64,000 nucleotides of DNA. It comes from Kitasatospora azatica KCTC 9699. GTDB taxonomy: Bacteria; Actinomycetota; Actinomycetes; Streptomycetales; Streptomycetaceae. The notes beneath the pieces were generated by a model. That model was not told where the DNA came from. It saw only the letters and a program-made list of their open reading frames with translations, and made no database searches. Of the stretch, positions 44,234 to 52,892 are shown in pieces. Within the stretch, counting starts at the first letter, position 1, and each line of letters starts with the position of its first letter. The stretch covers positions 4,836,001-4,900,000 of the forward strand of contig NZ_JQMO01000003.1 of the NCBI RefSeq assembly GCF_000744785.1. The letters are read 5' to 3'. The position numbers and the translations under genes are program-made.

Positions 44234-45868
44234 GTGAACATCGCTCTGGCGCGCCTGTCGCGCCGCATCCTGCCCGCAGTTCTGGGGGTCACCGTGGTGG
44301 CCGGTTGCAGCGGTTCCGGGGGGACAGGGGTCGCCAAGGGTTCTGCCAGCCCCGCACCGTCGATCTCCGCCGCGCCGTCGCCGTCCGCCTCGCCCACACC
44401 GTCCGCCTCGCCGACACCGACGGTGAAGCCGACCGGGGCTGACGATCCGGCACTCAAGTCCTTCTACGGCCAGCAGATCGCCTGGGCGCCGTGCGCCGAC
44501 GACCCGGAGACCAAGAACGTCGACGAGTCGACCTTCCAGTGCGGCACCGCGCACGTCCCGCTGGACTACGCCAACCCCGCCACCGACACCATCGACCTCG
44601 CCCTCGTCCGCAAGCCGGCCGCCAAGCAGGACCAGCGTCTCGGCTCGCTCTTCTTCAACCCCGGTGGCCCCGGCGGCTCCGGGATCGGCGAGGTCACCAA
44701 CGGGGCGGCCAGCCGGTTCCAGAGCCTGAACGACCGTTACGACCTGGTCGGCTTCGACCCGCGCGGCGTCGGCAAGAGCACCCCGGTGCACTGCCTGGAC
44801 GACGCGGCCCGCGACCAGTGGGTCACCGAGGACCACCCGGCCCAGGCCGCCAAGGGCAAGGCGCTCGCTGACGGCTGCCAGGCCAAGTCCGGCAAACTGC
44901 TGCCGTTCCTCGGCACCGCCGACGGGGCCCGCGACCTGGACGTGCTGCGCGGGGTGGTGGGCGACCAGAAGCTCAACTTCCTCGGCTTCTCCTACGGCAC
45001 CTACCTCGGCAGCGTCTACGCCGAGCAGTTCCCCGCCCGCACCGGGCACCTGGTGCTGGACGGGGCGATGGACCCGACCCAGACCCTGCTGGACTCCGAC
45101 GTGCAGCAGATGATCGGCTTCGAGGGCGTCTTCGAACGCTGGGCCGCCGACTGCGTCACCCACGACGGCTGCCCGCTCGGCAGCAATCCCGACACCGCCG
45201 CGAAGAAGGCCGCCGACTTCCTCGACGGTCTGGCCGACAACCCGATGACCACCAAGGACGGCCGCCAGCTCACCGCCTCCCAGGGCTGGACCGGCACGCT
45301 CAGCATGCTCTACGGCTCGGGAAAGTCCTGGGAGTACCTGCGCAACGGCCTCGACTGGGCGATGAAGGGCCACAAGGCGGACTACCTGCTCGACTTCGCC
45401 GACGGCTACAACGGCCGCGACGCCCAAGGGCACTACGACAACAGTGCTGACGCCTACGCCGCCATCACCTGCGCCGACCACGGCGCCCTGATGCCGACGG
45501 ACGACCAGATCCAGCAGGCCCTGCAGCAGTTGCACGACAAGGCGCCCTACCTGACCCGGCACTACACCAAGGACGACCTCTTCGACCCCGACTGCCGGGC
45601 CTGGCCCTACCGTTCCACCGTCCAGCCCCACCAGATCAAGGCCCCCGGCAGCGCCCCCATCCTGGTGGTCGGCTCCACCGGCGACGACGCCACCCCCTAT
45701 GCCTGGGCCCAGAACCTCGCCGCCGGCCTGCCCGGCGCCGTCCTCCTCACCCGTGACGGCGACGGCCACACCGGCTACGGCAAGAGCGCCTGCATCAAGT
45801 CGGCGGTGGACGCGTTCCTGATCAACGGCACCATGCCGGCGGCCGGGACACACTGCGCCAGCGACTGA
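44234..45868 (+). CDS. Tripeptidyl-aminopeptidase-like secreted lipoprotein, copy 1
   Basis: 544 residues from GTG 44234. Lipobox VVAGC with Cys25; a Ser/Pro/Thr linker; FFNPGGPGGSG; nucleophile GFSYGTYLG (S253); acid in VGSTGDDATPY and His in DGDGHTGYG. This is the S33/TAP-SlpD type that removes short peptides from N-termini. About 40 bp of promoter and leader are shared with copy 2, 1.9 kb downstream, which is a recent tandem duplicate. Confidence 0.92.
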   Translation: MNIALARLSRRILPAVLGVTVVAGCSGSGGTGVAKGSASPAPSISAAPSPSASPTPSASPTPTVKPTGADDPALKSFYGQQIAWAPCADDPETKNVDESTFQCGTAHVPLDYANPATDTIDLALVRKPAAKQDQRLGSLFFNPGGPGGSGIGEVTNGAASRFQSLNDRYDLVGFDPRGVGKSTPVHCLDDAARDQWVTEDHPAQAAKGKALADGCQAKSGKLLPFLGTADGARDLDVLRGVVGDQKLNFLGFSYGTYLGSVYAEQFPARTGHLVLDGAMDPTQTLLDSDVQQMIGFEGVFERWAADCVTHDGCPLGSNPDTAAKKAADFLDGLADNPMTTKDGRQLTASQGWTGTLSMLYGSGKSWEYLRNGLDWAMKGHKADYLLDFADGYNGRDAQGHYDNSADAYAAITCADHGALMPTDDQIQQALQQLHDKAPYLTRHYTKDDLFDPDCRAWPYRSTVQPHQIKAPGSAPILVVGSTGDDATPYAWAQNLAAGLPGAVLLTRDGDGHTGYGKSACIKSAVDAFLINGTMPAAGTHCASD

Positions 45869-46132: not shown

Positions 46133-47746
46133 GTGAATATCGCTCTGGCGCGTGTGTCGCGTCGCGTGCTGCCTGTTGTGTTGGGGGTCACCGTGGTGGC
46201 CGGGTGCAGTGGGTCCGGGGGGACGGGGACTGCGAAGGGGGCCGCCAGCCCGTCGGTGGCGGTCTCTGTCGCGCCGTCGCCGTCCGCCTCGCCCACGCCC
46301 ACGGTGAAGCCGACCGGGGCTGACGATCCGGCGCTGAAGTCCTTCTACGGGCAGCAGGTCGCCTGGGCGCCGTGCGCGGACGACCCGGAGACCAAGAACG
46401 TCGATGAGTCGACCTTCCAGTGCGGCACCGCGCACGTCCCGCTGGACTACGCCAACCCCGCCACCGAAGCCATCGACCTCGCGCTGGTGCGCAAGCCCGC
46501 GGCCAAGCAGGACCAGCGTCTCGGCTCGCTCTTCCTGAACCCCGGCGGTCCGGGCGGTTCCGGGATCGAGGAGGTCACCAACGGGGCGGCCAGTCGGTTC
46601 CAGAGCCTGAACGACCGTTACGACCTGGTCGGGTTCGACCCGCGCGGGGTCGGCAAGAGCAGCTCGGTGCACTGCCTGGACGACGCGGCCCGGGACCAGC
46701 TCAACGCCCAGGACCACGCGGACGCCAACACCGGCAAGGGCTTCGCCGATGCCTGCCAGGCCAAGTCCGGCAAGTTGCTGCCCTTCGTCGGCACCCGCAA
46801 CGCGGCCCGCGACCTGGACGTGCTGCGCGGGGTGGTGGGCGACCAGAAGCTCAACTACCTGGGCTTCTCCTACGGCACCTACCTCGGGGCCAGCTACGCC
46901 GAGCAGTTCCCCACCCGCACCGGACACCTGGTGCTGGACGGCGCGATGGACCCGAACGCCGATCCGCTGGACGCCAACGTGGCCCAACTCGCCGGCTTCG
47001 AGGGCGTCTTCGAGCGCTGGGCGGCCGACTGCGTGAGCCACGACGGCTGCCCGCTCGGCAGCGACTCCGGCGCCGCCGCGAAGAAGGCCGCAGACTTCCT
47101 GGACGGCCTGGAGCAGCACCCGATGACCGCCAAGGACGGCCGCCAGGTCACCTCCGCCGAGGGCTGGACCGGCGCGATGGACATGCTCTACGGCGACGCC
47201 AAGTCCTGGGAGTACCTGCGCGACGGCCTGGCCTGGGCGATGAAGGGGCACAAGGCGGACTACCTGCTGGCCTTCGCGGACGACTACAACGGTCGCGACG
47301 ACAAGGGCCACTACAACAACATGGCCGACGCCAACATAGCGATCGACTGTGCTGACTACGGCGCCCCGACGCCCTCCGACGACCGGATCCAGCAGGCGCT
47401 GCAGCAGTTGCACGACAAGGCCAAGTACCTGACCGCCCGGATGACCGCCGAGGACCTCAAGTCCCAGGACTGCCGGGCCTGGCCGGTCCACTCCGGCGAG
47501 GCGCCGCACGTGGTCAAGGCCGCCGGCAGCGCCCCGATCCTGGTGGTCGGCTCCACCGGCGACGACGCCACCCCCTACACCTGGGCCCAGAACCTCGCCG
47601 CCGGCCTGGCCAACGCCACCCTGCTCACCCGCGACGGCGACGGCCACACCGGCTACGGCAAGAGCGCCTGCATCAAGTCGGCGGTGGACGCGTTCCTGAT
47701 CAACGGCACCATGCCGGCGGCCGGGACACACTGCGCGACGGGCTGA
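46133..47746 (+). CDS. Tripeptidyl-aminopeptidase-like secreted lipoprotein, copy 2
   Basis: 537 residues from GTG 46133. Same layout as copy 1: lipobox VVAGC, FLNPGGPGGSG, GFSYGTYLG, VGSTGDDATPY and DGDGHTGYG, so active-site residues are intact. It lacks seven linker residues. Differences cluster in surface segments of the cap domain (for example LNAQDHADANTGKGF), while the last 104 bp before the final codons are identical to copy 1. Together they may give broader peptide specificity. Confidence 0.92.
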   Translation: MNIALARVSRRVLPVVLGVTVVAGCSGSGGTGTAKGAASPSVAVSVAPSPSASPTPTVKPTGADDPALKSFYGQQVAWAPCADDPETKNVDESTFQCGTAHVPLDYANPATEAIDLALVRKPAAKQDQRLGSLFLNPGGPGGSGIEEVTNGAASRFQSLNDRYDLVGFDPRGVGKSSSVHCLDDAARDQLNAQDHADANTGKGFADACQAKSGKLLPFVGTRNAARDLDVLRGVVGDQKLNYLGFSYGTYLGASYAEQFPTRTGHLVLDGAMDPNADPLDANVAQLAGFEGVFERWAADCVSHDGCPLGSDSGAAAKKAADFLDGLEQHPMTAKDGRQVTSAEGWTGAMDMLYGDAKSWEYLRDGLAWAMKGHKADYLLAFADDYNGRDDKGHYNNMADANIAIDCADYGAPTPSDDRIQQALQQLHDKAKYLTARMTAEDLKSQDCRAWPVHSGEAPHVVKAAGSAPILVVGSTGDDATPYTWAQNLAAGLANATLLTRDGDGHTGYGKSACIKSAVDAFLINGTMPAAGTHCATG

Positions 47747-47811: not shown

Positions 47812-48307
47812 TTAGGGGTTTGCACTCCAGGTGCCGCTGTTCCACACCGGATTGTTGTTCGCGTCGTAGATGACGAAGTTGGCATCGTCCTGCACTGAAG
47901 CGCGAGCGCCCCTCAAGGGGGTTTTGGAGCTCCAGAGAGCGTCGCCGGCCACCCCCGGAGAGGGGTACACCGGGTTGCCGGTCACCGGGTCCTGCTTGGG
48001 CTGGTAGACGACGAGATTGCCGTCGCTCTGGAAGGTGGCCCATGCACCGTAATGGTAGTTTGTGCCCGTACTCCACAGGGGGGTACCTGTGCTGAGTGAG
48101 TACAGCACCAGATTCCCGTCGGTCTGCATGGCCAGCCGGGTGTGGGCGGCGTAGACGGTGTCACCGGGGTGGAGCACTGTGCCGGGGGTGATGTTGGTAC
48201 TTCCGCCGGTGCTCGGGCCGATGGCCACCGAGACCGCACCGAGGTCGGCTGCGGGAGCGTTGTTCTGAGCGGCGCTGAACGAGGTGACGGCGTTGCTGTC
48301 AATCCCC
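47812..48307 (-). pseudogene. Bulb-type lectin domain, 5'-truncated by insertion elements
   Basis: The minus-strand frame from 48307 to the stop at 47812 carries a complete B-lectin domain with three QxDxNxVxY repeats (MQTDGNLVLY, FQSDGNLVVY, VQDDANFVIY), which bind mannose in related proteins. Upstream codons (FSAAQNNAPAADLGAVSVAIGPST) continue in frame up to the IS3/IS701 junction, so the original N-terminus, likely a larger secreted protein, is lost. A GTG at 48228 could still start a 138-residue lectin. No signal peptide remains. Confidence 0.7.
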
Positions 48308-49704
48308 TGTAACAGGGCTCGGTCATGATTCTCGACCTATTCGGCCAAGTAGCTGACTGACTATGGCCGTTGGGGCGATGGTCAGTCCATGGAGCTACAG
48401 GCCATGCCCGCGCTGGACGCGGACCTCGCGGAGTTCACCGGTGACATCTTCAAGTACCTGGCCTATGAGGGCCAACGCAGGTATGGACAGCAGTACTTGC
48501 GGGGGTTGATGCTCGACGGCAAACGCAAGTCGGTGGAGCCGATGGCTGAGCGCCTGGGCATCCCACGACAGAATCTGGGCCACTTCGTCGCCCAGTCCAC
48601 CTGGGACTACTCCGAGGTGATGCGACGGGTTGCGGCGCGGGCGGTCAATGTCATCTCACCGTCGGCCTGGCTGATCGACGACCATCCGTTCGTCCGCTAC
48701 GGCCACGGCACTGCGGGGGCGATCGTGCAGCACTGCGGCGAACGCAACCAGCACTTGTGCCAGGTCGGAGTGTCCGTGCACGCGGTGTCCGGGCGAGGGT
48801 CGACCCCGCTGCACTGGCGCCTGTTCCTTCCACAGAAGTGGGCAGAGGATCCGGTGCAGTGCGCGAAGGCCGGGGTCCCGCCCGGGCTCGCGCACCGCAC
48901 CAAGCAGCAGATCGCCCTGGACCTGCTCGACGAACTCGCCGAATGGGGGAACGCCCCGCCTCTGGTCATCGCCGACAGTGACTACGGCACCAACGTCGCG
49001 TTCCGGACCGGGCTCACAGCCCGCGACATCCGCTGGCTGCTGGCAGTCCAGGGGGACACGGTGGTCCTGCCTGCCACGGGTACGCCGGTCACCGCCTGGG
49101 CGAAACGACGCCCCACCGTCTCCGTCGACACCCTCGCCGGGGCCAACCGGCACCGGGCCACCCGATTCATCGACCGCGCCAAGACCGCGAGCCACCGAGC
49201 CCGCTCTGGCTGGTTCGCCGCCATTCCCGTGCACATCGCCGGCATCATCGAACGCGGACACGTCGCGGAAACCGACAGCCGGCTCCTGCCCCAGCGCACC
49301 CTGCTGGTTCAGTGGCGGCGCAAGAACGGCGGAGGGGTGTTCCGCTCCTGGATCACCGACCTGCCCCCGGATACTCCACTGTCGGCCCTGGTCAGGCACG
49401 CCACCAGCCGCTGGCGTATCGAGACCGACTACCGCGAGATGGAGCAGGCCCTGGGTCTGGGAGACTACGAGGGCCGGACCTACCGCGGATTCCACCACCA
49501 CGTCACCCTGGTGTCAGCCGCGCACGTGTTCTGCCTGGAACAGCGCCTCAACCCAAAAGATCAGGACACGCCCTGAGCCTGTATCAGGTCGTGTCCTTCC
49601 TACAGATCGCGCTGATCACCACCCTGTGGCGTTGCCTGGCCTGCCACCGAAACCCGAACGACCTCACCGGCCTTGGTCAAGGACCATGACCGAGCCCTGT
49701 GTAA
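48308..49704. mobile_element. IS701-like insertion sequence with 5-bp target duplication
   Basis: The element runs from 48313 to 49699 (1387 bp). Its ends are inverted repeats starting CAGGGCTCGGTCATG, matching at 22 of 25 positions. It is flanked by identical TGTAA at 48308-48312 and 49700-49704. One transposase gene fills it. The target is the outer tip of an older IS3-family element. Confidence 0.88.
48389..49576 (+). CDS. IS701-family transposase (0-frame part)
   Basis: 395 residues in the 0 frame. SRSO1/IS701-type DDE motifs: WLIDDHPFVRYG, VIADSDYGTNVAFR and the C-terminal SRWRIETDYREMEQALGLGDYEGR. The frame ends at 49576, but the usual family C-terminus (ALSLYQVVSFLQIALITTLWR) continues in the -1 frame to 49689. 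A slippery CCCAAAA, in the exact C-CCA-AAA phase, lies at 49552-49558 before the stop, so the full protein could be made by -1 frameshifting. Otherwise the element has a single-base lesion. Confidence 0.88.
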   Translation: MELQAMPALDADLAEFTGDIFKYLAYEGQRRYGQQYLRGLMLDGKRKSVEPMAERLGIPRQNLGHFVAQSTWDYSEVMRRVAARAVNVISPSAWLIDDHPFVRYGHGTAGAIVQHCGERNQHLCQVGVSVHAVSGRGSTPLHWRLFLPQKWAEDPVQCAKAGVPPGLAHRTKQQIALDLLDELAEWGNAPPLVIADSDYGTNVAFRTGLTARDIRWLLAVQGDTVVLPATGTPVTAWAKRRPTVSVDTLAGANRHRATRFIDRAKTASHRARSGWFAAIPVHIAGIIERGHVAETDSRLLPQRTLLVQWRRKNGGGVFRSWITDLPPDTPLSALVRHATSRWRIETDYREMEQALGLGDYEGRTYRGFHHHVTLVSAAHVFCLEQRLNPKDQDTP

Positions 49705-49850
49705 TCGTGGAGTCCTTCGCTATGCGGCCTGGGCCTCCTGATGAGCCTTGGCTCGTGCCTTGCTGATGATCCGTTCGAACTCCACAGGCGGTAGGCCGCC
49801 GGCCGCGCTGTGCCGGCGGCGGGTGTTGTAGAAGTCGGCGATCCAGGTAG
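49705..49850 (-). mobile_element. IS3-family element remnant (3' end of transposase)
   Basis: On the minus strand, codons for RVATWIADFYNTRRRHSAAGGLPPVEFERIISKARA-type residues ending at TAG 49720-49722 are the typical C-terminus of an IS3-family (integrase-core) transposase. The element's tip TGTAATCGTGGAGTCC follows. Only about 150 bp remain; the rest has been lost where it joins the RHS gene near 49850. Confidence 0.8.
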
Positions 49851-51770
49851 CGACACGAACTCACCCTGGACACGACGAGCAAGTCGCTCTCCGATGTTCG
49901 CTACTACCCGTCGCCGGGAGGCCTGACGATCACTCGGGTCACTGCGGCAACCGGCGGCGGGACCCTGGTGTACCAGGCGGCCGACCCGCACGGCACCACC
50001 GGTGTGCAGATCGATACCGGCACGGCGCAAAACGTGACGCGCCGGCCGACCGACCCGTTCGGCAACCCGCGTGGCAGCCAGCCCGCTCCGGGCAGTTGGT
50101 CCGGTGACAAGGGCTTCGTCGGCGGCACTCTGGACACCGCCACCGGCCTGACCGACCTCGGTGCCCGTGAGTACGACCCGCTGCACGGCCGCTTCCTCAA
50201 TCCCGACCCACTACTCGACCTGACCAGCCCGCAGCAGTGGAACGGCTACGCCTACAGCGACAACCACCCGGTCAGCAGTTCCGACCCGAGCGGGCTGATA
50301 CACCAGGCCGACTTCTACTCCGGCGGCGCTGGCGACGGGACCGCCTGCGACGCCACCTGCCAGGCCACGCTGCCGACCACCTCCTCCGCTCCGATGCCGG
50401 ACACCAGCGGCTTTGGTCAGCCCGCGCACCCGACCACCCCGAGCAACGGCGGCGGCAAGGGCGGCAACGGTGGCGGCGGCTGGCTGGACGGCCTGAAGTC
50501 GGTGGGACACGCCATCAGCAGCGGGGCGAAGGCGGTGGCCCACGGTGTCGAAACCGGCGCCAAGGCTGCCGGCAACGGCGTTGTCAGTGGCGCCAAATGG
50601 GCCTGGGACCACAGGGCGGACATCGGCCAAGCGATCGTCGAGACGGTCGTCTACTCGGGCTGCATCGGCGGCTCCCTGGCGGGCGCTGCCGAAACCGGCG
50701 GCGCGAGCCTGCTCGCCGTCGCCGGGTGCGGGGCCGTGGCGGGTGCGGCCGGTGCGGCGACGTACGACCTGCTGAGCCCGGACGCGCCCAGTACGCCTGG
50801 CGGAGTCTTCAAGGACATCGCCAGTGGCGCTGCCTTCGGAGCCGTCGGCGCGGTGATCGGCGAGGGCGCGAGCTACGTCGGCAAGAAGGTGGTGCAGAAG
50901 GCTGCACCTCTGCTCGGGGACGCGGCTGACTGGGTGGCGAACAAGCTCAGCAAGGCCTGTGCGAACAGCTTCCCGGCGGGCACGCTGGTGCTTCTGGCGG
51001 ACGGAAGCACCAAGGCCATCAACACGGTTGCCGTCGGCGACCAGGTGGCCTCGGCGGACCCGCAGACCGGGCAGAGCAACGGTGAGCCGGTCACCCAGAC
51101 CATCGTCACTCCGGACGACCAGGCGTTCACGGACCTGACCTTCGCCCCAGATGCTCCCAATGCGGCAGCCACGGAGGTGAGTTCACTATCATCACCCACC
51201 GACGGTGCCGTTACGTCCACCCAGCATCACCCGTTCTGGGATGTCACTGCCCAGCGCTGGACCAACGCGGCGGACCTGAGGCCGGGCGACCGCATCGCGG
51301 TGGACACCGCTGCCGGAACCGCCACGGTGACCTCTGTCCGGAGCTACAGGACGGACCCTGAGACCGCCTACAACCTGACTGTTGATGAGCTTCATACTTA
51401 CTACGTTGTGGCGGGCGGGACCCCGGTTCTCGTCCACAATGATGCTTGCCCGTACGGGTACCACGTCGACGGTGACCCGGATTGCGAATGTCAGCCCCCC
51501 GTCGGTGGAACCGCGGTAGCCGGAACCCGACAGCCCCCGCAAGAGGCCCCTTGGAAGGGGTCCCTGAAAAAGGCCGGCGACCTGGTCGGTGGCCTAGAGA
51601 AGGGAGCCTCCGAGCTTCACGCGGGCACCATGCACTCGCACGACTTCACAGGTACGGATCTGGAGCACCCCTTCGCCGATCCGTACTCAACCCTGCTGAT
51701 CACCGGCCTTCGCGTAGGCACACTAGCCCGGCAAGGCGCGAAGAAGCTCTTCTCGCGAAGGGATGAATGA
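49851..51770 (+). pseudogene. C-terminal fragment of an RHS polymorphic toxin (RHS core end, Hint domain, toxin tail)
   Basis: An in-frame stop at 49848 and the IS3 remnant mark the cut. The first part has RHS/YD-repeat core motifs: YYPSPGGLTITRV, DPFGNPRG, GFVGGTLDTATGLTDLGAREYDPLHGRFLNPDPL, YAYSDNHPVSSSDPSGL. Then a Gly/Ala-rich pretoxin stretch. A Hint (intein-like) domain runs from Cys (50958) through TSTQHHPFWD to VLVHN (51440). The last 109 residues (starting DACPYGYHVDGDPDCEC) are a toxin-like tail I cannot assign. No start codon with a ribosome site remains except an internal GTG (49968). Confidence 0.8.
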
Positions 51771-51788
51771 GAGTTGAGGCCAACGGTA

Positions 51789-52352
51789 ATGAATGGTCGT
51801 GGTGGCGGGGGGCAGGAGGGGATCGGCCAGGCCGTGGCCGGCGTCTGGGCGGCAGCAACTGCCCAGGACCTCGCACGGGCACTTGCCGAGTGCAACTCGT
51901 ACCACCCAATAGCCGCTGCCCGGTTCTTCCGGGGAGCGATTCGGTTGAGGTTCCCGATGCCGTGCGACCCACGCCAGGTCAGTCAGGCACTCTCCGATTG
52001 GCTGGCCAGGTTTCCGCAGATGAACCAGGAGATGCTGGTCCCGCGTGAGGCCGAGGCGTTCATCAGGGCGGAGTTGAACGGCGAGGCCGACTTGGTCGCC
52101 GACGTGGCGATCGACTCCAATCCGGTGCGCACTACCCTGATGGTGGTCACTCGGTGCGTATTTGAGGAGGCGCTGGCGAGTGCGCCTTCCTTCGCCGACC
52201 TTCGCCGGATCACGGCGCAGGCGGCCCAGGACCATCGCGACCTCGCCGCCATCACGAGCCTGAAACTGGACAGCATCTTCGTCCGTCGCGACTTGAACGC
52301 AGCTGAGTTCGAAGCGCTGATCGGCGAGGCCGATACAGTGAGGTGGACATGA
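51789..52352 (+). CDS. Unknown protein downstream of RHS tail (candidate immunity protein)
   Basis: 187 residues from ATG 51789 (GAGG upstream), 18 bp after the RHS stop. No signal peptide; mostly helical, with two Trp-rich segments (VSQALSDWLARFPQMNQEM). I recognise no family. Position directly behind an RHS toxin tail is where immunity genes lie. It overlaps the next gene by 4 bp (ATGA), so both are cotranslated. Confidence 0.55.
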   Translation: MNGRGGGGQEGIGQAVAGVWAAATAQDLARALAECNSYHPIAAARFFRGAIRLRFPMPCDPRQVSQALSDWLARFPQMNQEMLVPREAEAFIRAELNGEADLVADVAIDSNPVRTTLMVVTRCVFEEALASAPSFADLRRITAQAAQDHRDLAAITSLKLDSIFVRRDLNAAEFEALIGEADTVRWT

Positions 52353-52843
52353 GGAGTTGGCGCTTCAACCGGCCTGCGCTGGCGCCGAGGTCAGTGTTCG
52401 GCAGTTGGTTCCTCGCTGTGCTGCTCAACCGACCGGAGCAAATCGCTCACTACAGGGCGTTGATGGAGGAGCTGATCCCCGAGGGAAGCACGGAGCATTT
52501 CGCGATCGCTGAGCGCGTCTTCGCGCAGCTCATGTTGATGAGGTTCACACCTGACCAGCCGGTGCGGGACATCTCGGACTTCGTCGCGGCCGTGCGTGGG
52601 GTGATGGCTCACCCCGAGGCCATTGGCCGACTGGAGGCGGAGGCCCTGATCAGGCACGCGCTCGGCGAGCAGACGGTCTGGCTGGCCGGCATCGACGCCC
52701 AGCAGGCGGGCACTGTCTACGGGGGCCTGTCGGTCCGGGTCATTCAGGAGAAGAGGCTCTCCGAGGGGGCCGTCAGGCGCCTTGTGGTAGAGGCCGAGGG
52801 CTGGGCGGAGGCCAACGGGATCCGGCTTGTGGTTGCCGAGTAG
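52349..52843 (+). CDS. Unknown protein, second gene behind RHS tail (candidate immunity protein)
   Basis: 164 residues from ATG 52349. Soluble, helical, with FGSWFLAVLLNRPEQIAHYRALMEELIPEGSTEHFAIAER-type amphipathic segments; no family recognised. It is coupled to the preceding gene and followed by a strong terminator, so the RHS fragment and these two genes form a single transcription unit. It could be an immunity protein or an accessory factor. Confidence 0.5.
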   Translation: MRSWRFNRPALAPRSVFGSWFLAVLLNRPEQIAHYRALMEELIPEGSTEHFAIAERVFAQLMLMRFTPDQPVRDISDFVAAVRGVMAHPEAIGRLEAEALIRHALGEQTVWLAGIDAQQAGTVYGGLSVRVIQEKRLSEGAVRRLVVEAEGWAEANGIRLVVAE

Positions 52844-52853
52844 CCGGACAACG

Positions 52854-52892
52854 CCCGTGTGCCGCGGAGCGCAGGCTCCGCGGCCACACGGG
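52854..52892. terminator. Strong hairpin ending the RHS cluster
   Basis: CCCGTGTG-CCGCGGAGC (52854-52870) pairs with GCTCCGCGG-CACACGGG (52875-52892) with one bulged C and loop GCAG. A second weaker hairpin (GCTAGCGA/TCGTTAGC, 52908-52932) follows. It separates the RHS genes from the convergent SnoaL gene. Confidence 0.75.

What the first reader, a model, noticed from the sequence alone, without database searches (positions are those of the whole stretch)
49851..52843. RHS toxin C-terminus with Hint domain, unrecognised toxin tail and two coupled downstream genes
RHS core end, Hint domain (Cys at 50958 to His-Asn at 51440) and a 109-residue tail beginning DACPYGYHVDGDPDCEC are followed by two genes overlapping by ATGA and a strong terminator. 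This is the layout of a polymorphic toxin with immunity genes. Neither tail nor downstream proteins match families I know, so a new toxin/immunity pair is possible.
Basis: partly seen in the sequence, partly recalled or inferred. Interest (0 to 1): 0.72.

Follow-up and report, generated by a model that had tools for sequence, protein, structure and literature searches.

The report
Orphaned RHS toxin-immunity remnant module
A soil actinomycete (Streptomycetaceae) keeps the broken-off tail end of a large secreted RHS weapon protein with two small helper genes that probably make the bacterium immune to it; the tail and both helpers belong to families not in current databases and were found together in only three species, which makes it a new, narrowly spread variety of a well-known kind of bacterial weapon.

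Summary
The RHS core end, the pretoxin-Hint domain, the 109-residue tail, two ORFs overlapping by ATGA and a strong hairpin are at the stated coordinates. Homology to an intact 2475-aa RHS in a congener (G050) starts at 49857, next to an IS3-like remnant and an IS701 element, so about 1840 residues, the signal region and the start are gone. This is an orphan tail-immunity module. Its parts form a real unit: of 70 genomes of the genus, the same three carry tail, ORF1 family and ORF2 family, always adjacent, in three different contexts. G050 fuses the ORF2-type and ORF1-type proteins into one. The tail diverges sharply (16% identity over its last 65 residues against 84% for Hint), while the ORFs are constrained. 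No Pfam, NCBIfam, PHROG, PADLOC or PDB family matches. The best reading is a new toxin family of the polymorphic-toxin kind with a two-part, soluble, helical immunity. The toxin is perhaps a small membrane-active helix rather than an enzyme, which is untested and weakest in this copy. The Cys-His motif opening the tail is a post-Hint linker seen on unrelated tails.

The parts
48312..49700 (+). IS701-family element with 16-bp terminal inverted repeats (ACAGGGCTCGGTCATG); transposase 48389-49576
   Evidence: NF033540 E 6.5e-95; exact 16-bp inverted repeats
49720..49854 (-). C-terminal remnant of an IS3-type transposase (VATWIADFYNTRRRHSAAGGLPP...), abutting the RHS break
   Evidence: translation; the IS3 assignment is from knowledge of the motif, not from a profile hit
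49857..51770 (+). 5'-truncated RHS gene fragment: core end, Hint and tail; about 1840 N-terminal residues missing
   Evidence: 65% identity to residues 1843-2472 of the intact 2475-aa RHS of G050, no earlier part anywhere in the window; core TIGR03696
50958..51440 (+). Pretoxin-Hint domain, Cys to His-Asn
   Evidence: PF07591 E 1.6e-14; 84% identical to the G050 Hint
51441..51497 (+). Post-Hint linker with C-x4-H-x6-C-x-C motif
   Evidence: the same kind of motif follows Hint on tails L040 and L053, which look unrelated
51498..51767 (+). Putative toxin region: amphipathic helix, linker, cationic C-terminal helix
   Evidence: no family match; relatives only in G050 and G061; hydropathy and charge
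51774..52352 (+). ORF1, putative immunity protein, all-helical (low-confidence model), 192 aa or less
   Evidence: 62% identity to G061 and about 40% to the C-terminal half of the G050 fusion protein; dN/dS about 0.34 against G061; model
52349..52843 (+). ORF2, putative immunity protein, seven-helix model, 164 aa, ATGA overlap with ORF1
   Evidence: family members in G061 (three copies), G050 (fusion) and two Streptacidiphilus; model pLDDT 74 with no fold match
52854..52892 (+). 17-bp hairpin, terminator-like
   Evidence: fold z-score -5.4

Best explanation
The locus is an orphan Rhs-CT/immunity module. An ancestral secreted RHS protein carried a Hint domain that cut itself at His-Asn/Asp and freed a tail of about 109 residues. 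After a linker containing the Cys-His motif, the tail is a small toxin without recognisable catalytic residues, made of an amphipathic helix and a cationic C-terminal helix. ORF1 and ORF2 are translationally coupled, soluble, helical immunity proteins that bind the tail in the producing cell. In this genome, insertion sequences and a deletion removed the RHS 5' part, so the tail is probably silent and the two immunity genes are kept as protection against neighbours carrying the intact version, or simply have not yet decayed. Shown: truncation, intact Hint motifs, module co-occurrence, the fusion in G050, rapid tail divergence, constraint on the ORFs. Inferred: toxicity, immunity, Hint cleavage, silence of this copy. 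The membrane-active mode of the toxin is the least certain step (about 0.4).
For: Hint and Rhs core profiles. An intact 2475-aa RHS with the same Hint and a homologous tail in G050, directly followed by a fused ORF2-type plus ORF1-type gene. The same 3 of 70 genus genomes have the tail, ORF1 and the ORF2 family, whereas Hint proteins occur in 66 of 70, so the linkage is specific to this tail. In G061 a tail remnant plus four such genes lies at a different site near a pSAM2-type RepSA gene. Identity to G050 drops from Hint 84% to tail 1-44 57% to tail 45-109 16%, the polymorphic-toxin pattern. ORF1/ORF2 dN/dS against G061 is about 0.34 and 0.47, against about 0.6-0.8 for the tail comparisons. 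The G050 and G061 tails rank first and second of 34 for C-terminal hydrophobicity, with net charge +4. Neither ORF has a strongly hydrophobic segment. Fused and tandem immunity genes and orphan Rhs-CT fragments are described in PMC3482391 and PMC3967940.
Against: No functional data. Only three tail sequences are known. The window's own C-terminal helix is only weakly hydrophobic (0.69, rank 11 of 34). A membrane-acting toxin usually meets a membrane-bound immunity protein, and ORF1/ORF2 look soluble. The tail is short of conserved residues outside the shared linker motif.
Confidence: 0.62

Rival explanations
1. Same orphan toxin-immunity module, but the tail acts in the cytoplasm, as an unrecognised small enzyme or a binder of a cytosolic target, not on the membrane.
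For: ORF1 and ORF2 are soluble and helical, as expected for neutralising a cytosolic toxin; the window tail is not strongly hydrophobic; the Cys/His residues could hold a metal.
Against: Outside the linker motif no catalytic-looking residue is invariant in the three tails; the Cys-His motif recurs on tails that look unrelated; two of three tails end in the most hydrophobic, cationic segments of 34 compared.
Confidence: 0.25
2. The tail is a dead or non-toxic end and ORF1/ORF2 are unrelated cargo genes of mobile elements.
For: The RHS is truncated; ORF2-family genes without any RHS gene in the stretch read occur near RepSA and integrase in Streptacidiphilus; no known toxin family matches.
Against: Tail, ORF1 and ORF2 family co-occur in exactly the same three genomes in three contexts, once behind an intact secreted RHS; the ORFs are under constraint.
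Confidence: 0.1
3. One of the two genes is the cognate immunity and the other is an accessory immunity gene for a related tail (a small polyimmunity locus). This is a variant of the best explanation and not exclusive of it.
For: G061 carries four such genes in tandem; polyimmunity loci are a known feature (PMC3482391).
Against: ORF1- and ORF2-type domains are fused in one protein in G050 and translationally coupled here, which argues that they act together.
Confidence: 0.3

Closest known systems
Rhs polymorphic toxins with pretoxin-Hint domain (PF07591)
   Same: RHS core end, Hint with Cys and His-Asn, variable tail, small downstream genes, same strand
   Different: tail and downstream families are in none of Pfam, NCBIfam, PHROGs, PADLOC, PDB; this copy lacks the RHS 5' part
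Orphan rhs-CT/rhsI modules of Enterobacteriaceae (Salmonella LT2, PMC3967940)
   Same: RHS fragment with toxin tail and linked immunity gene, lacking initiation and export signals
   Different: no near-identical full-length RHS in the same genome to recombine with (best 77% DNA identity over about 225 bp); the break is next to insertion sequences rather than downstream of a main rhs gene
Polyimmunity loci and fused polyimmunity proteins (PMC3482391)
   Same: tandem (G061) and fused (G050) immunity-like genes
   Different: two helical families not among the described Imm families as far as the profiles searched show
Non-catalytic small toxin domains Tox-WTIP and Ntox38 (PMC3482391)
   Same: small tail without evident catalytic residues; hydrophobic helix as in WTIP
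   Different: no RxxR/W-TIP or PXhhG signature seen by eye; one clear hydrophobic helix rather than two; Hint/RHS carrier in an actinomycete

Membership tests
Hint-bearing RHS polymorphic toxin | RHS core followed by a Hint domain with N-terminal Cys and C-terminal His-Asn | tested here: met
   TIGR03696 1.2e-15 and PF07591 1.6e-14; Cys 50958, HN 51440
Hint-bearing RHS polymorphic toxin | variable C-terminal tail against a conserved carrier | tested here: met
   identity 84% Hint, 57% tail 1-44, 16% tail 45-109 against G050
Hint-bearing RHS polymorphic toxin | full-length secreted RHS carrier | tested here: not met
   only residues equivalent to 1843-2472 of 2475 are present in the window; met in relative G050
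Hint-bearing RHS polymorphic toxin | tail is toxic | not testable with these tools
   needs expression
Orphan Rhs-CT/immunity module | RHS fragment with tail and linked immunity gene, no initiation or export region | tested here: met
   truncation at 49857; linked genes conserved with the tail
Orphan Rhs-CT/immunity module | cognate immunity function | not testable with these tools
   needs co-expression
Known Imm or toxin families (Pfam, NCBIfam, PADLOC, PHROGs) | profile match above cut-off | tested here: not met
Known folds for ORF2 | Foldseek match to a solved or viral structure | tested here: inconclusive
   best E about 1 and 0.7 with a pLDDT 74 model

The most novel reading that the evidence does not exclude
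A new class of Hint-released toxin: a small non-enzymatic helical peptide that inserts in membranes and is held inactive by a composite immunity made of two soluble helical proteins, fused into one in a relative, rather than by a membrane-bound immunity protein.
Probability: 0.2. Interest if true: 0.55.

Novelty: new member of a known kind. Interest (0 to 1): 0.36.

Why it matters
It adds one unrecorded toxin family and two unrecorded immunity-like families, with a narrow phyletic range, to the actinomycete polymorphic-toxin repertoire. It also shows an orphan RHS module outside the enterobacteria whose immunity genes stay open and constrained between species although the weapon is broken. The natural fusion in a relative makes the claim that the two genes act as one immunity directly testable.

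Tried and rejected
Weak tail hits in G068, G055, G037 and G323 lie in unrelated frames and were dropped; the G282 ORF2 hit was not convincing either. ORF1 and ORF2 as paralogues of each other: profile-profile comparison gives no support (probability 2%). The Cys-His motif as the toxin active site: rejected because it recurs after Hint on tails that look unrelated. No relatives in plasmids, phages or viral contigs, nor in genome contigs for ORF1. AlphaFold of ORF1 alone was poor (pLDDT 44) and was not searched. Recombination back into a resident RHS, as in Salmonella: no long identical stretch (longest about 28 bp).

Full report
Observation. The frame 49851-51770 carries the Rhs-associated core end and a pretoxin-Hint domain, with Cys at 50958 and His-Asn ending at 51440. 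The tail is 109 residues. ORF1 and ORF2 overlap by ATGA at 52349-52352, and a 17-bp hairpin follows at 52854-52892 (z = -5.4).

What was missed. The RHS gene is broken. Against the intact 2475-aa RHS of a congener (G050, locus L017), the window matches only residues 1843-2472, beginning at 49857. The sequence just before is the C-terminal end of an IS3-like transposase on the minus strand (assignment by motif knowledge), then an IS701-family element, 48312-49700, with exact 16-bp inverted repeats. No N-terminal RHS part lies elsewhere in the window. The fragment therefore has no export region and no evident start, like the orphan rhs-CT fragments of Salmonella (PMC3967940). The other RHS copies of this genome share at best about 77% DNA identity over about 225 bp with the fragment, longest identical run about 28 bp, so a Salmonella-type rescue by recombination looks unlikely.

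The module is real. In 70 genomes of the genus, the tail profile, ORF1 and the ORF2 family occur in exactly the same three genomes, although pretoxin-Hint proteins occur in 66 of 70. The three contexts differ. In the window the module sits between an alpha/beta hydrolase and a mannosyltransferase, behind the RHS fragment. In G050 the RHS is intact, the hydrolase lies on the other side, and a single gene encodes an ORF2-type domain followed by an ORF1-type domain. In G061 only the end of Hint and the tail remain, followed by an ORF2-type gene, ORF1, ORF2 and another ORF2-type gene, a few kb from a pSAM2-type RepSA gene. Distant ORF2 relatives occur in two Streptacidiphilus species, one of them next to RepSA and an integrase. 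In the wider family sample no further tail or ORF1 relative was found.

Evolution. Against G050, identity falls from 84% in Hint to 57% over the first 44 tail residues and 16% over the last 65. ORF1 and ORF2 remain constrained (dN/dS about 0.34 and 0.47 against G061), while the tail comparisons give about 0.6-0.8 (simple Nei-Gojobori counts, near saturation in places). This is the pattern of a polymorphic toxin with its immunity, but recombination of cassettes would give the same contrast.

Anatomy of the tail. The first 19 residues hold a C-x4-H-x6-C-x-C motif; comparable motifs follow Hint in tails L040 and L053, which look unrelated, so this is best seen as a linker. The rest has an amphipathic helix and a cationic C-terminal helix. 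In G050 and G061 this helix is the most hydrophobic of 34 tails compared, with net charge +4. In the window it is weak (0.69). No residue outside the linker looks like an invariant catalytic site. This suggests, but does not show, a membrane-active toxin. ORF1 and ORF2 lack strongly hydrophobic segments, which fits neutralisation in the cytoplasm of the producer and is the main argument for the rival, a cytosolic target.

Structures. ORF2 with two Streptacidiphilus relatives gives a seven-helix model at pLDDT 74 without match in the PDB or in viral structures. ORF1 alone gives an all-helical model of low confidence. Profiles of ORF1, ORF2 and tail find nothing significant in the PDB by sequence.

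Verdict. An orphan RHS tail with two immunity-type genes: a new toxin family and two new immunity-type families within the known kind of polymorphic toxin systems. Toxicity and immunity are inferred. Interest is moderate.

Noticed in passing
47812-48311 (-): A bulb-type (B_lectin) lectin gene is cut at its 5' side by the IS701 element; the frame stays open up to the element's border and the two flanks of the element show no obvious target-site duplication, which suggests a deletion or rearrangement here.
   Followed up: partly
45803-45865: A short stretch 86% identical to the 3' end of the G050 hydrolase gene lies just before the window's intact hydrolase (46133-47746), suggesting a tandem hydrolase copy upstream.
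   Followed up: no
L018:6180-6473 (-): An ORF after the immunity-type genes in G061 ends in a hydrophobic, basic segment like the tails (SPAIGMLVLGAVMARGTVFEARTTANRWRQ); it could be a second orphan tail.
   Followed up: partly
L017:9823-10668 (+): A gene with an HELGH metallopeptidase-like motif follows the fused immunity gene in G050 and has no Pfam match at E 0.01.
   Followed up: partly
L034, L035: Two resident RHS proteins of this genome carry a bulb-lectin-like insertion inside the RHS repeats (MQADGNLV motifs).
   Followed up: no
window 51441-51497, L040, L053: A C-x(4-6)-H-x(3-6)-C-x-C motif directly after Hint recurs on tails that look unrelated; a possible metal- or disulfide-holding linker.
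   Followed up: partly
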